DNA of 49,803 bases from Komagataeibacter melaceti. GTDB taxonomy: Bacteria > Pseudomonadota > Alphaproteobacteria > Acetobacterales > Acetobacteraceae. Positions 16,429 through 21,701 of the stretch are shown here, piece by piece; the first letter of the stretch is position 1; each line of letters starts with the position of its first letter. Below the pieces are notes generated by a model. It had not been told where the DNA came from and did not search any database. It worked only from the letters and a program-made list of their open reading frames with translations. Position numbers and translations under genes: made by a program. Location of the stretch: the NCBI RefSeq assembly GCF_003403295.1, contig NZ_QUWV01000055.1:1-49803 (forward strand), given 5' to 3'.

Positions 16429-16887
16429 TTATACCGAAAGCTGCGCGCGCACGACAGCGCTCGCGCGTGCGGGGTCGAGGGCCGCGCCAAACTGTTCCTT
16501 CAGCGCGCCCATGACCTTGCCCATGTCCTTCATGGATGTGGCGTCGGTGCGTTCGATGGCTTCGCGCACGGCGGCCTCGATGGTGGCGTCGTCCAGGTCG
16601 GGGGGCAGGTAGTCACGGATCACGGCGATTTCCGCCTCTTCCTTTTCCGCCAGTTCGGGGCGACCGCCCTTGACGTACAGCGCCGCCGATTCCGTGCGGG
16701 ACTTGACCATGCCGCGCAGCATGGAAATCACGGCCTCGTCGCTGACCTCATCCTCGCCCTTGGCCCGCCCGGCGATATCGACATCCTTCAGCTTTGCGGT
16801 GATCATGCGGATGGTGCCGACCTTTTCGCTCTGGCCCGCCTTCATGGCTGCTTTCAGATCATCCTTGAAACGTGCGCGCAGGGACAT
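16429..16887 (-). CDS. GatB/YqeY domain protein
   Basis: A 152-residue stand-alone YqeY-like protein (SLRARFKDDLKAAMKAGQ; KVGTIRMITAKLKDVDI; IRDYLPP; MGKVMGALKEQF). The domain is related to the tRNA-binding tail of GatB, and the free-standing form often sits beside dnaG and rpoD. Its biochemical role is not firmly known. The ATG at 16887 is preceded by GAGGAG 9 nt upstream; a TTG 9 nt earlier is less likely. It heads the yqeY-dnaG-rpoD operon and is divergent from HTH-carA, sharing the 148-bp gap with the twin palindromes. Confidence 0.9.
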   Translation of the reverse strand: MSLRARFKDDLKAAMKAGQSEKVGTIRMITAKLKDVDIAGRAKGEDEVSDEAVISMLRGMVKSRTESAALYVKGGRPELAEKEEAEIAVIRDYLPPDLDDATIEAAVREAIERTDATSMKDMGKVMGALKEQFGAALDPARASAVVRAQLSV

Positions 16888-16933
16888 GACTGTCAACTCC
16901 TCTGCCCGGCGGGGGCACGATGCCCTTCATGCC

Positions 16934-16948
16934 GGGAATAATTTTCCC
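16934..16948. promoter_or_regulatory. Palindrome GGGAA-N5-TTCCC, copy 1 (candidate operator)
   Basis: GGGAATAATTTTCCC, with 5-bp arms identical to those of copy 2 and an AT-rich centre. It lies in the divergent gap, 47 bp upstream of the yqeY ATG and 87 bp before the HTH-carA ATG. Two matching palindromes 38 bp apart suggest a dimeric DNA-binding protein; its identity is inference. Confidence 0.55.
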
Positions 16949-16971
16949 ATGGTCCTGATGTGCCGGTATGT

Positions 16972-16986
16972 GGGAATTTTCTTCCC
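16972..16986. promoter_or_regulatory. Palindrome GGGAA-N5-TTCCC, copy 2 (candidate operator)
   Basis: GGGAATTTTCTTCCC, which extends by one more pair (T16971/A16987). It starts 38 bp after copy 1 and ends 49 bp before the HTH-carA ATG at 17036, where a repressor or activator of carAB could act. Confidence 0.58.
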
Positions 16987-17035
16987 AACCGGGCAGGACG
17001 CTGTTAGGCAATACTCCCGGAAGGGACATCATCCA

Positions 17036-17242
17036 ATGCCGATGACGATAGAAAACATTATCGAGCGCCTTGGCGGCGCCGAACAGGCCGCGCGCCTGAC
17101 CGGCGTCAGCACCGAGGCCATTCGCAAATGGCGGCAGGCGCGCGCCATACCGCCCAAGCACTGGACAACCGTGCTGCGCGCAACCGGCCTGTCACTGTCC
17201 GACCTGCAACCCGCCACAGAATCCGACCGACCGGAGCCCCCG
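17036..17242 (+). other. HTH domain encoded in frame ahead of carA
   Basis: Residues 1-69 of the fused frame: a helix-turn-helix core at about residues 13-38 ([20 protein letters not shown]), a following helix to about residue 58, then a Pro/Glu-rich linker into CarA. It resembles small Cro/C1-type DNA-binding proteins. From memory, and unverified, NCBI uses the name 'carph-isopro domain' for short HTH-like segments found next to carbamoyl-phosphate synthase. No stop codon separates it from carA, so if it is translated a fusion must be made unless translation restarts at 17243. Confidence 0.65.
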
Positions 17243-18433
17243 ATGAGCACGCCAAACCCGCCCGCACCGGCCGACAGGCCCAAAGCCGCGACAGCCGCCC
17301 TGATCCTGGCCGATGGCACCGTCCTGTGGGGGCGTGGATTCGGCGCATATGGCACGGATGCGGCCATTGGCGAGATCTGCTTTTCCACCGGCATGACCGG
17401 CTATCAGGAAACGCTGACCGATCCGTCATTCGCCGGGCAGATCATCACCTTCACCTTCCCCCATATCGGCAATACCGGCGCCACGGCGGAAGATGATGAA
17501 GCCGACCGCGTACGGGCCCGCGCGCTGGTGGTGAAGGAAGACCTGACCGCGCCGGCCAACTGGCGCGCTACCGAGTCGCTCGATGCATGGCTCAAGGAAC
17601 GCAACATTCCGGGCATCTGCGGCATCGACACCCGCGCCATCACCCTGCGCATCCGTGACGGCGGGCCGCAGACCGCTGTCGTCGCCTACCCCGAGGATGG
17701 CAATTTCGACCTGCCCGCCCTGCAGGCCCGCGCACGCCAGTGGCCGGGGCTGGAAGGGATGGACCTTGCACGCGAAGTCACCTGTGCCGCCCCCTACGCA
17801 TGGACCGAGGGTGTATGGAAGTGGCCGCATGGCACCGAACCCCTGCCCGCGAAGCGGCGTAAGGTGGTCGCGGTCGATTACGGGGCCAAGCGCAACATCC
17901 TGCGCTGCCTGGCGTCCGCCGGGTGTGATGTGACCGTGGTACCCGCCACCGCCACGGCGGAGGAGATACTGGCGCTCGACCCCGCGGGCGTGTTCCTGTC
18001 CAACGGACCGGGCGACCCGGCGGCCACGGCCGAATACGCGGTCCCCGCCATCCGTGGCGTGCTGGAAGCGGGCAAGCCGCTGTTCGGCATCTGCCTTGGT
18101 CACCAGCTTCTGGCGCTGGCGCTGGGCGCCACGACCTACAAGCTGGCGCGCGGCCACCGGGGGGCGAACCAGCCGGTCAAGGACCTGGCGACGGGCAAGG
18201 TGGAAATTACCAGCCAGAACCATGGTTTTGCGGTGGATGAAAAATCCCTGCCCGCCGATGTGCGCGCGACCCATGTCAGCCTGTTCGATGGCTCGAACGA
18301 AGGGATCACCACCAGCCGCTACCCGGCCTTTTCGGTGCAGTACCACCCCGAGGCCAGCCCCGGCCCGTCCGACAGCCATTACCTGTTCCGCCGCTTTGTC
18401 GATCTGATCGACACCACAACCAAAGCTGCCTGA
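17036..18433 (+). CDS. carA: Carbamoyl-phosphate synthase small subunit with in-frame N-terminal helix-turn-helix extension
   Basis: Glutaminase subunit that supplies ammonia to CarB for carbamoyl phosphate, the precursor of pyrimidines and arginine. The CarA proper begins at the ATG at 17243 (396 residues; E. coli 382). It has the CPSase small-chain domain, then a class I glutamine amidotransferase with nucleophile Cys284 (GICLGHQ, codon 18092-18094) and the YHPEASPGP histidine region. The frame is open upstream without a stop to an ATG at 17036 with a good GGAAGGGA site. The 69 added residues form a Cro/YdaS-like HTH ([20 protein letters not shown]). GGAG also lies 7 nt before 17243, so one or two products are possible. 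carB follows after 13 bp. Confidence 0.88.
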
Positions 18434-18446
18434 AAGCCGACCCGAA

Positions 18447-21400
18447 ATGCCAAAACGGACAGACATAAGCTCCATCCTGATTATCGGCGCCGGCCCGATC
18501 GTGATCGGCCAGGCGTGCGAATTCGACTATTCCGGCGCGCAGGCCTGCAAGGCCCTGAAGGAAGAGGGCTACCGCGTCATTCTGGTCAACTCCAACCCCG
18601 CCACGATCATGACCGATCCGGGGCTGGCGGATGCGACCTATATCGAGCCGATCACCCCGGAATTCGTCGAGCGCATCATCGAGCGTGAAAAGCCCGACGC
18701 CGTGCTGCCCACCATGGGCGGCCAGACCGCGCTGAACACGGCCATGGCGCTGGACAAGTCCGGCTTCCTGAAAAAGCACGGGGTTGAACTGATCGGCGCG
18801 AACGCCGAGGTGATCGACCGGGCCGAGGACCGCCAGAAATTCCGCGAGGCGATGGACGCCATCGGCATCGAAAGCCCGCGCAGCCTGATCGCCCATTCGC
18901 TGGAGGAAGCCCGCGCGGCGCTGGGCAATGTGGGCCTGCCCGCGGTCATCCGCCCGTCCTTCACCATGGGTGGCTCGGGCGGCGGCATCGCCTACAACCG
19001 CGAGGAATTCGACCGCATCGTCACCTCCGGCCTCGACGCCTCCCCCACCACGGAAGTCCTGATCGAGGAATCCGTGCTGGGCTGGAAGGAGTACGAGATG
19101 GAGGTCGTGCGCGACAGCGCGGACAACTGCATCATCATCTGCTCCATCGAGAATATCGACCCGATGGGCGTGCATACCGGTGATTCCATCACCGTGGCCC
19201 CCGCCCTGACCCTGACGGACAAGGAATACCAGCGCCTGCGTGACATGTCGCTGGCCTGCCTGCGCAAGATCGGGGTGGAAACGGGTGGCTCGAACGTGCA
19301 GTTCGGCATCAACCCCGTTGATGGCCGCGTGGTGGTGATCGAGATGAACCCGCGCGTGTCACGCTCCTCGGCACTTGCGTCCAAGGCGACGGGCTTCCCC
19401 ATCGCAAAGGTCGCGGCCAAGCTGGCGGTGGGCTACACGCTGGATGAACTGACCAACGACATTACCGGCAGCACCCCGGCATCGTTCGAGCCGACGATTG
19501 ATTATGTCGTGGTCAAGATCCCGCGCTTCACGTTCGAGAAATTCCCTGGCACGCCCGCCCTGCTCTCCACCAGCATGAAATCGGTTGGCGAGGCGATGGC
19601 CATTGGCCGCTCCTTCCCCGAGGCGCTGCAGAAGGGCCTGCGCTCGATGGAAATCGGGCTGGCGGGCCTCGACCCGGTTGAAGAACCGGGCGATGGCGGC
19701 CCCGATGCGTTCCGCGCCGCACTCTCCCAGCCCCGGCCCGAGCGCATCCTCATGGCAGCGCAGGCCCTGCGCGCAGGGCTGAGCGTGGAAGACATCCACG
19801 ATGCCTGCCGGTTCGAGCCGTGGTTCCTGCGCGAACTGGCCAAGATTGTCGCGGCCGAGCACACGGTCATGCGCGACGGCCTGCCCGAGGACGCCGACAG
19901 CCTGCGTGCGCTCAAGTCCATGGGCTTTTCGGACACCCAGCTTGCCCGCCTGTCCGGCACCAATGCGGATGAAATCGCGAAGCTGCGCGAAGGCCGTGGC
20001 GTGTTGCCGGTCTACAAGCGCATCGACACCTGCGCGGGTGAGTTCGCATCCCCCACGCCGTACATGTATTCCACCTATGAAGGTGGGTACGGCGTGCCGG
20101 AATGTGAAAGCCGCCCGACGGACCGCAAGAAGATCGTCATCCTTGGTGGCGGTCCGAACCGCATCGGCCAGGGGATCGAGTTCGACTACTGCTGCGTCCA
20201 TGCCGCCTACGCCCTGCGTGAGGCCGGTTTCGAGACGATCATGGTCAACTGCAACCCCGAGACCGTCTCGACCGACTACGACACGTCCGACCGCCTGTAT
20301 TTCGAGCCGCTGACGGCCGAAGACGTGATCGCCCTGATCCGCCGCGAGCAGGAAAACGGCACGGTCCTGGGCTGCATCGTGCAGTACGGTGGCCAGACGC
20401 CGCTCAAGCTGTCGCATGCGCTGGAGGCCGCGGGCATCCCGCTGCTCGGCACGCCCGCCGATTCGATCGACCGGGCCGAGGACCGTGAGCGCTTCCAGGC
20501 CATGCTGCACAAGCTGGGCCTGCGCCAGCCCGCCAACGGCATCGCCCGCAGCCCGGCGGAAGCCGAGGCCGTGGCCGAGAAGATCGGTTACCCGGTGGTG
20601 GTCCGCCCGTCCTACGTGCTGGGCGGGCGCGCGATGGAAATCGTGCATGACCGCGCCAGCCTGCAGCGCTACATGCGCGTGGCCCTGCAGCTTGCGGGCG
20701 CGGAAGTGGCCAACGGCCCGGTGCTGATCGACCATTACCTGAACGACGCGATCGAGGCGGATGTGGACTGCATCGCCGATGGCGACGAGGTGTACGTGGC
20801 CGGCGTGATGGAACATATCGAGGAAGCGGGCATCCATTCGGGTGACAGCGCATGTTCGCTGCCCCCCTATACGCTCTCCCCCGCCATCGTGACCGAACTC
20901 AAGGCCCAGACCGAAGCCATGGCGCGCGAGCTTGGCATTGTCGGCCTGATGAACGTGCAGTACGCGATCAAGGGGCAGGAGATCTTCGTGCTGGAGGTCA
21001 ACCCGCGTGCCTCGCGCACCGTGCCGTTCGTGGCCAAGGCGACGGGCGTTCCGGTGGCCAAGATCGGCGCACGGGTCATGGCGGGCGCGAAGCTGGGCGA
21101 ATTCCGGCTTGATGACCGCGCCGTCGCCCCGCATGTGGCGGTGAAGGAAGCGGTCTTCCCGTTTAACCGCTTCCCCAACGTGGATACGATCCTTGGCCCC
21201 GAGATGCGCTCCACGGGCGAGGTGATGGGCCTTGATGCCTCGTTCGAGCGCGCCTTCGCCAAGTCACAGCTTGCCGCGGGCGTGAAGCTGCCGCTGTCGG
21301 GCACGGTGTTCCTGTCCGTGCGTGACAGTGACAAGGCGGCCGTGAAGTCACTGGGCCGTCGCCTGTCGGACATGGGCTTCACCATCATGGCCACGCGCGG

Positions 21401-21701
21401 CACCGCCACCTGCCTGCGTGAGGCCGGGGTGAACGTGCGCGTGGTCAACAAGGTGCTGGAAGGCCGACCGAACTGCGTGGACGCCATCCGCTCGGGCGAG
21501 ATCCAGATGGTCATCAACACCGCGCAGGGCGCGCAGGCGGTTACGGACAGCTTTGACATCCGCCGCTCCGCGCTGACGCATGGCATCCCGCACTACACCA
21601 CCATCGCGGGCGCGCGGGCCGCGACGCATGCCATTTCGGCCATGCGTGAGGGGGTTCTTGAAGTCGCGCCACTTCAATCCTATTTTAAAGGATCATTCTG
21701 A
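18447..21701 (+). CDS. carB: Carbamoyl-phosphate synthase large subunit
   Basis: Makes carbamoyl phosphate from bicarbonate, ammonia delivered by CarA, and two ATP. The 1084-residue product has the duplicated architecture: two preATP-grasp/ATP-grasp halves ([20 protein letters not shown] in the first; [20 protein letters not shown] in the second). An oligomerisation domain lies between them and a C-terminal MGS-like regulatory domain follows (about residue 940 onward, including [18 protein letters not shown]). Full length with no interruption. It is 13 bp after carA and followed by a strong hairpin, so carA-carB form one unit. Confidence 0.97.

What the first reader, a model, noticed from the sequence alone, without database searches (positions are those of the whole stretch)
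16934..17242. HTH domain fused in frame to CarA, facing two matching palindromes
Seen: an open frame from the ATG at 17036 joins a 69-residue Cro/YdaS-like HTH to CarA with no stop. Two 15-bp palindromes with identical GGGAA/TTCCC arms lie 38 bp apart just upstream. Known: HTH domains bind palindromic operators as dimers, and carAB is the committed step to pyrimidines and arginine. Inferred: the HTH could bind these sites and control carAB (and perhaps the divergent yqeY-dnaG-rpoD operon), making the enzyme or a second, shorter product a sensor. A 'trigger' enzyme of this layout is worth testing.
Basis: partly seen in the sequence, partly recalled or inferred. Interest (0 to 1): 0.7.

Follow-up and report, generated by a model that had tools for sequence, protein, structure and literature searches.

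The report
CarA enzyme with built-in DNA-binding head
In acetic acid bacteria and their relatives, the enzyme subunit that starts pyrimidine and arginine synthesis carries a phage-Cro-like DNA-binding head, and matching binding sites sit on its own promoter, so the enzyme most likely turns down its own gene directly.

Summary
The Cro-like HTH is in 198 of 200 genomes searched in the order and in frame with CarA in 118 of 120 CarA loci read (50 genera); the other two lack the HTH. A palindrome, TGGGAA-N5-TTCCCA or CCGGAA-N5-TTCCGG, lies within 200 bp upstream of 117 of 118 fusions, twice in 94. No site of 10 of 12 or better precedes 31 of 31 HTH-less carA genes. In 53 of 118 loci the 17-bp operator fills the gap between a -35-like TTG and a weak -10-like box just before the ATG. 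Helix residues 34/36 and the outer operator base covary, residue 34 with two independent changes. Best model: HTH-CarA represses its own promoter, a fused trigger enzyme. The same HTH family heads LeuA and NAD(P)H-hydrate epimerase, with other N5-spaced palindromes upstream. Many linkers keep an internal ATG with Shine-Dalgarno, so an HTH-less CarA may also be made. Binding, sign and ligand are untested.

The parts
16933..16949 (.). Upstream operator of the pair, CGGGAATAATTTTCCCA (11 of 12 consensus positions)
   Evidence: same sequence in the 9 loci of the genus read, own included
16971..16987 (.). Downstream operator TGGGAATTTTCTTCCCA (12 of 12); its right half overlaps a proposed -35 (TTCCCA 16982-16987)
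   Evidence: the genome has one exact 17-bp match
17005..17010 (+). Proposed -10 region (TAGGCA), 17 bp after TTCCCA; weak, from eye alignment of related loci
   Evidence: against it, a sigma-70 consensus scan found no promoter here
17019..17026 (+). Shine-Dalgarno-like GGAAGGGA before the HTH-CarA start
   Evidence: read
17036..17209 (+). Cro-like HTH domain, residues 1-58; helix 26-35 expected to read DNA (Q34; R36 just after it)
17210..17293 (+). Variable linker; residues 59-76 modelled with pLDDT under 50 (Pro/Ala-rich across relatives)
17243..17245 (+). In-frame internal ATG with GGAG at 17233-17236: possible second start giving CarA without HTH
   Evidence: a linker ATG with SD occurs in at least one member of 28 of 50 genera
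17036..18433 (+). HTH-CarA open reading frame (465 aa plus stop); CarA homology begins at residue 87
18447..21701 (+). carB, 13 bp after carA
   Evidence: CarB named by reading the sequence
16429..16887 (-). divergent yqeY
   Evidence: Pfam YqeY PF09424, 148.8 bits

Best explanation
HTH-CarA is a fused trigger enzyme: the small subunit of carbamoyl-phosphate synthase carries a Cro-like DNA-binding head on a flexible linker. Two heads bind as a dimer to a 17-bp palindrome (TGGGAA-N5-TTCCCA) on its own promoter, and a second dimer usually binds a like site about 38-39 bp upstream. The downstream site lies either between the -35 and -10 boxes or over the -35 box, so bound protein should block RNA polymerase: carA, with carB where they form an operon as in the window, is repressed by its own product. 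Repression thus follows the amount, and possibly the assembly or ligand state, of the enzyme; paired sites would suit a multimeric enzyme presenting several heads. In many species an internal start may also yield CarA without the head, giving a mixed pool. Shown here: the fusion, the conserved sites, their place before the gene, their absence where the head is absent, covariation of head and site, and the predicted Cro fold. Inferred: promoter boxes, binding, dimerisation, repression rather than activation, any ligand response, the second product.
For: HTH in 198 of 200 genomes of the order; in frame with CarA in 118 of 120 CarA loci read, the other two having no HTH, and in 80 of 80 loci of a second, named collection fetched by the HTH. 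15 of 100 loci have no ATG, GTG or TTG in the linker, so there CarA should come from the HTH start. Sites: 117 of 118 loci, at least one member of all 50 genera. Spacing of neighbouring sites 37-40 bp in 67 of 91 cases (sites of at least 9 of 12 in the first 100 loci). No site of 10 of 12 or more before 31 of 31 carA genes without HTH. Exact 17-bp motif: 53 of 62 listed sites lie at carA, in 41 of 44 genomes. Place: 53 of 118 loci have the site 10-16 bases before the ATG, with TTG just before it in over 90%. Covariation: 11 of 11 loci with Ser34 have C at the outer operator base; Gln34 with R/K/Q/H/N at 36 has G in 135, a tie in 3, C in 0; Ser34 needs two separate changes on the CarA tree, each clade with a Gln34 sister (L124, L121) carrying the G-type site. 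Out of sample: 7 of 7 new Ser loci C, 10 of 11 new Gln loci G. Fold: best matches are N15 Cro alone and on operator DNA (2hin, 6on0).
Against: No binding, expression or proteomic data. Gln34 with Gly36 has both types (18 G, 5 C, 1 tie), so residue 34 alone is no code; the genomes are related and the tree is a quick one. Foldseek E-values for the Cro match are weak (0.011; none at 0.001 or better) although its probability is 1.00. Nine exact motif copies lie away from carA and one genome has 11 such copies, 9 of them one sequence, none at carA. 24 of 118 loci lack a second site at the threshold used. The -10-like box is poorly conserved and no sigma-70 consensus promoter was found in the window. 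carB right behind carA was seen in 68 of 118 loci only, by a motif search of the bases held. 38 bp is not a whole number of helical turns, so same-face cooperativity is not obvious.
Confidence: 0.82

Rival explanations
1. The palindromes belong to a separate transcription factor; the HTH on CarA is a protein-interaction or assembly domain.
For: No binding data; other HTH proteins of the genome were not surveyed; an HTH fold can serve other roles (recalled).
Against: No site of 10 of 12 or more before 31 of 31 carA genes without HTH, 53 of 62 listed exact motif copies lie at carA, and HTH residues and site change together, residue 34 in two separate clades. A separate regulator would have to track CarA's head.
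Confidence: 0.08
2. Two products: full-length HTH-CarA is mainly the repressor, while an internal start (17243 in the window) gives plain CarA as the main enzyme subunit. Compatible with the best explanation.
For: Linker Met 87 of 2452 residues against 398 of 44231 in the core; SD-like sequence before 67 of 87 linker ATGs against 11 of 398 core ATGs and 254 of 2365 non-ATG linker codons; 116 of 118 linkers located.
Against: 22 of 50 genera show no linker ATG with SD in any member read and 15 of 100 loci have no possible start in the linker, so it cannot be the general rule. The ATG could be a relic of the start before fusion; near relatives are counted many times.
Confidence: 0.35
3. HTH-CarA activates its gene, or mainly acts on the divergent yqeY operon, rather than repressing carA.
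For: The upstream site could let it contact RNA polymerase; yqeY is divergent in 106 of 118 loci, and two sites were found in 89 of these 106 against 5 of the 12 others.
Against: The downstream site lies between -35-like and -10-like boxes or over a proposed -35, and its place is more constant relative to the carA ATG than to yqeY.
Confidence: 0.1
4. The open frame is a chance join of a leader peptide or small gene with carA.
For: Short open frames with this HTH exist elsewhere.
Against: Frames open in all HTH-bearing loci read despite linkers of very different length; an ATG start in 100 of 100.
Confidence: 0.02

Closest known systems
Trigger enzymes with a DNA-binding part: PutA, BirA, NadR of E. 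coli (PMC8249747, passages read)
   Same: Enzyme and DNA-binding function in one protein; PutA binds the spacer between putA itself and putP and represses (as that paper states).
   Different: Different enzyme (a subunit of heteromeric, biosynthetic CPSase) and different DNA-binding domain; recalled: PutA uses a ribbon-helix-helix. Ligand response untested here.
E. coli carAB control (PMC6245113, passages read)
   Same: carAB is under trigger-enzyme control there too (PepA, PyrH).
   Different: There separate proteins act (ArgR, PurR, RutR, IHF, PepA, PyrH); the passages read do not describe CarA as DNA-binding.
Phage N15 Cro / P22 Cro / YdaS-type HTH
   Same: Closest solved sequence (2hin, E 0.0065) and fold (2hin, 6on0).
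   Different: Those are small free proteins; this one is the N-terminal head of an enzyme with another operator.
NCBIfam NF046037 carph-isopro domain
   Same: Hit far over cut-off; the name (my reading) already couples carbamoyl-phosphate and isopropylmalate synthases, so NCBI's curators probably knew both fusions.
   Different: A family model; the calls give no operator or role, and no paper in the library holds the name.

Membership tests
NCBIfam NF046037 carph-isopro domain | score above curated cut-off over the domain | tested here: met
   70.3 bits against 38, positions 1-54 of 54
Pfam YdaS_toxin / P22_Cro | score above gathering cut-off | tested here: inconclusive
   YdaS_toxin 30.9 over 30 for the HTH alone, 29.2 for the whole protein; P22_Cro 29.3 under 30.2
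Trigger enzyme (enzyme with own DNA-binding domain) | intact enzyme in the same chain | tested here: met
   CPSaseIIsmall 450.5 bits, cut-off 307.35; C353, H437, E439 invariant in 52 aligned proteins; their catalytic role is recalled; activity not tested
Trigger enzyme (enzyme with own DNA-binding domain) | DNA-binding domain fold | tested here: met
   AlphaFold2 model and Foldseek match to N15 Cro, free and on DNA; prediction only
Trigger enzyme (enzyme with own DNA-binding domain) | candidate cognate sites at the regulated promoter | tested here: met
   117 of 118 loci with HTH; 0 of 31 without
Trigger enzyme (enzyme with own DNA-binding domain) | binds DNA and changes transcription | not testable with these tools
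   needs gel shift, footprint, reporter
Trigger enzyme (enzyme with own DNA-binding domain) | regulation answers to substrate or end product | not testable with these tools
   needs expression assays with uracil, arginine, UMP, ornithine

The most novel reading that the evidence does not exclude
The carph-isopro HTH is a portable self-regulation head: it has been fused more than once to the N-terminus of unrelated enzymes (CarA, LeuA, NAD(P)H-hydrate epimerase, crotonyl-CoA reductase), and at least three times an own N5-spaced palindrome arose on the enzyme's own promoter, head and operator co-evolving. In CarA many lineages also keep an internal start, so one gene would make both a repressor-enzyme and a plain enzyme subunit, letting the assembly state of CPSase set repression.
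Probability: 0.5. Interest if true: 0.87.

Novelty: new variant of a known kind. Interest (0 to 1): 0.8.

Why it matters
How acetic acid bacteria control carbamoyl phosphate, shared by pyrimidine and arginine synthesis, turned up in none of the paper searches made here. This offers a one-gene answer that a gel shift can test. It would put a committed-step enzyme directly on its own promoter, add CPSase to the short list of trigger enzymes, and provide a natural protein-DNA co-evolution set: one head, one promoter, over 100 genomes, two independent changes of residue and operator. The LeuA and epimerase fusions suggest a reusable way in which enzymes become their own regulators.

Tried and rejected
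Rfam search of 16700-17400 gave no match up to E 1. One search read minus-strand loci the wrong way round; redone. One search picked wrong reading frames for the outgroup carA genes and is not used; one search replaces it. One search failed by a faulty search expression for 18 loci; one search replaces it. One search used a wrong frame for yqeY and dnaG; its site and linker counts are used, its neighbour counts are not (instead). Other targets of the palindromes: the own-genome copies of the 15-bp pattern were looked at by context only (14 loci), and eight loci with off-carA copies of the 17-bp motif from other genomes likewise; no shared second target stood out, but gene names were not searched. 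The idea that residue 34 alone sets specificity was dropped after five Gln34-Gly36 loci with C-type sites turned up. The one crotonyl-CoA reductase fusion read has no palindrome of note upstream. For LeuA and epimerase heads the consensus was read off the same few loci: 6 of 7 LeuA loci have two sites of at least 9 of 12 (shuffles 0.03); 8 of 8 placed epimerase loci have a site of at least 9 of 14 (shuffles 1.58), the best ones scoring 11 to 14; one of nine epimerase loci was not placed. These are leads.

Full report
What is there. The frame from the ATG at 17036 runs without a stop through carA to 18433, with carB 13 bp further on. The first 58 residues are a Cro-like helix-turn-helix: NCBIfam carph-isopro 70.3 bits against a cut-off of 38; the closest solved sequence is phage N15 Cro, E 0.0065. 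AlphaFold2 on 52 aligned fusions gives an all-helical head, a low-confidence linker (59-76) and a CarA body (mean pLDDT 83.7). The head alone has block means of pLDDT above 90 over residues 11-50, and Foldseek ranks N15 Cro, free and bound to operator DNA, first (E 0.011, probability 1.00; no match at E 0.001). Two palindromes with GGGAA/TTCCC arms and 5-bp centres lie at 16934-16948 and 16972-16986.

The fusion is old and general. The HTH is found in 198 of 200 genomes drawn from the order. I read 102 CarA loci first: in 100 the HTH is in the same open frame as CarA; the other two (genomes of 1.7 and 1.9 Mb, though several with the head are as small) have CarA without it. With 18 further loci the set is 118 fusions of 50 genera, each one frame of 441-506 aa. 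A second collection, scanned for the HTH, gave 80 of 80 fused, among them named species of Komagataeibacter, Novacetimonas, Gluconacetobacter, Acetobacter and Rhodopila. The window itself is most like Komagataeibacter (up to 99% identity of the head). Linkers differ greatly in length and sequence yet stay in frame. In 15 of 100 loci the linker holds no ATG, GTG or TTG. Of 54 loci outside the order that fetched (their best hits, not all hits), none holds CarA. carB was seen behind carA in 68 of 118 loci, in 58 of these within about 60 bases; in the other 50 a motif search of the bases held did not show it, so the operon is not universal.

The sites go with the head. Within 200 bp upstream, 117 of 118 fusions have a site with at least 11 of 12 fixed positions of TGGGAA-N5-TTCCCA or CCGGAA-N5-TTCCGG; 94 of 118 have two of at least 10 of 12. 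In the first 100 loci 67 of 91 spacings between neighbouring sites (of at least 9 of 12) are 37-40 bp, 38 being commonest. Of 31 carA genes without the HTH (29 other Alphaproteobacteria, being those fetched among 87 genomes with a hit over the cut-off, and the two exceptions) none has a TGGGAA-type site of 10 or more in up to 400 bp upstream (one had only 161 bases); the best score 9. In 57 later loci of non-identical sequence 52 have a site; four of the five misses carry CCGGAA-like sites at the same places, the fifth has mixed arms. The exact motif is largely private to carA: of 62 listed sites in 44 genomes with a known carA place, 53 lie at carA, in 41 of the 44 (the listing was cut, and 13 listed sites in genomes without a listed carA place were set aside). 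31 of 120 genomes have no exact copy at all.

The sites lie where a promoter should be. In 53 of 118 loci the downstream site ends 10-16 bases before the ATG. Aligned, these show TTG in over 90% directly before the 17-bp site and a poorly conserved TA-rich hexamer directly after it, about six bases before the ATG. The operator would then be the promoter spacer and the transcript leaderless or nearly so (inferred). In the other 65, the window included, the site is mostly further up; in those I compared by eye its right half TTCCCA stands about 17 bp before a TA-containing hexamer (for example L001, L014, L024). For the window this is weak, as a sigma-70 scan finds nothing, and in L028 and L030 the script picked a Shine-Dalgarno region instead of the operator. 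Either place predicts repression.

Head and operator covary. Residue 34 sits in the helix expected to read DNA. In 174 distinct loci, all 11 with Ser34 have C at the outer base of the half-site (CCGGAA); Gln34 with Arg, Lys, Gln, His or Asn at 36 has G in 135, ties in 3 and C in none; Gln34 with Gly36 has 18 G, 5 C and 1 tie; the one Thr34 is mixed. So at least two residues count. On a quick tree of the CarA part Ser34 needs two separate changes, forced by well-supported branches, each clade with a Gln34 sister (L124, L121) that keeps TGGGAA. The covariation was noticed on 5 loci (4 Ser, 1 Thr) and then tested on 18 new ones: 7 of 7 Ser loci C, 10 of 11 Gln loci G. The Fisher p ignores kinship and is not used. 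This is the strongest evidence that the head itself reads these sites.

A second product is likely in many species. Met makes up 87 of 2452 linker residues against 398 of 44231 in the core; 67 of 87 linker ATGs follow GGAG, GAGG or AGGA within 5-16 bases, against 11 of 398 core ATGs and 254 of 2365 other linker codons (116 of 118 linkers located). 28 of 50 genera have such an ATG in at least one member, 22 in none. The window has one at 17243 with GGAG at 17233-17236. Near relatives are counted many times.

How it would work. Two heads on a palindrome block RNA polymerase at the carA promoter; the paired site suggests two dimers or a larger assembly. In E. coli, CPSase moves between heterodimer, dimer and tetramer, UMP favouring the heterodimer and ornithine the tetramer (PMC6245113, passages). 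If that holds here, assembly state could be read out at the promoter; but UMP would then loosen, not tighten, a multimer-dependent repressor, so simple concentration homeostasis is as likely. No ligand claim is made.

A wider pattern. The same HTH family is fused in frame to 2-isopropylmalate synthase (L231); that head was found in 7 of 60 genomes of that order, and all seven frames run into LeuA-like sequence (read by eye). It is also fused to NAD(P)H-hydrate epimerase/dehydratase (L051); that head was found in 9 of 11 genomes of the family, the enzyme part being checked by family search in L051 only. Upstream lie other palindromes with the same 5-bp centre: TTAGAC-N5-GTCTAA-like pairs and TGTACGT-N5-ACGTACA just before the ATG. 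A crotonyl-CoA reductase fusion (L058) showed none, and L041 carries the HTH on a mitofilin-like protein. NCBI's name carph-isopro fits carbamoyl-phosphate and isopropylmalate synthases (my reading).

What is known. The library of papers gave no hit for the domain name, for carbamoyl phosphate synthetase with helix-turn-helix and Acetobacteraceae, or for Komagataeibacter with carA and carbamoyl. A search on carAB, Gluconobacter, pyrimidine, repressor and operator (at least four terms) found 29 papers, of which I saw the listing of 15, none by title on acetic acid bacteria. Further searches showed no paper on such a fusion in their listings. Most subscription papers are not held, so absence in print is not shown. 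E. coli's trigger enzymes are listed as BirA, NadR, PepA, PutA and PyrH (PMC8249747, passages). The find is a new variant of the trigger-enzyme kind, well supported by comparison and untested at the bench.

Noticed in passing
L231:196-1695 (and L258-L264): carph-isopro HTH fused in frame to LeuA (2-isopropylmalate synthase), with TTAGAC-N5-GTCTAA-like palindromes upstream, some starting with TTTGACA that could be a -35.
   Followed up: partly
L051 and L265-L273: The same HTH fused to NAD(P)H-hydrate epimerase/dehydratase (checked in L051), with TGTACGT-N5-ACGTACA-like sites 8-11 bases before the ATG in the 8 loci placed.
   Followed up: partly
L058:1486-2985: The same HTH fused to crotonyl-CoA carboxylase/reductase; no clear palindrome upstream.
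   Followed up: partly
L041 (similar-looking proteins in other loci): The HTH heads a mitofilin-like protein (Pfam Mitofilin 45.6 bits for L041): why such a protein has a DNA-binding-like head is unexplained.
   Followed up: no
L130, L131: Two genomes of the order (1.7 and 1.9 Mb) have CarA with neither the head nor the operators.
   Followed up: yes
genome G105: Eleven exact TGGGAA-N5-TTCCCA palindromes, 9 of them TGGGAAACACCTTCCCA or its complement, none at carA: perhaps a repeated element.
   Followed up: no
upstream of loci such as L114, L107, L121: Apparent leaderless carA promoters, with a -10-like box about six bases before the ATG.
   Followed up: partly
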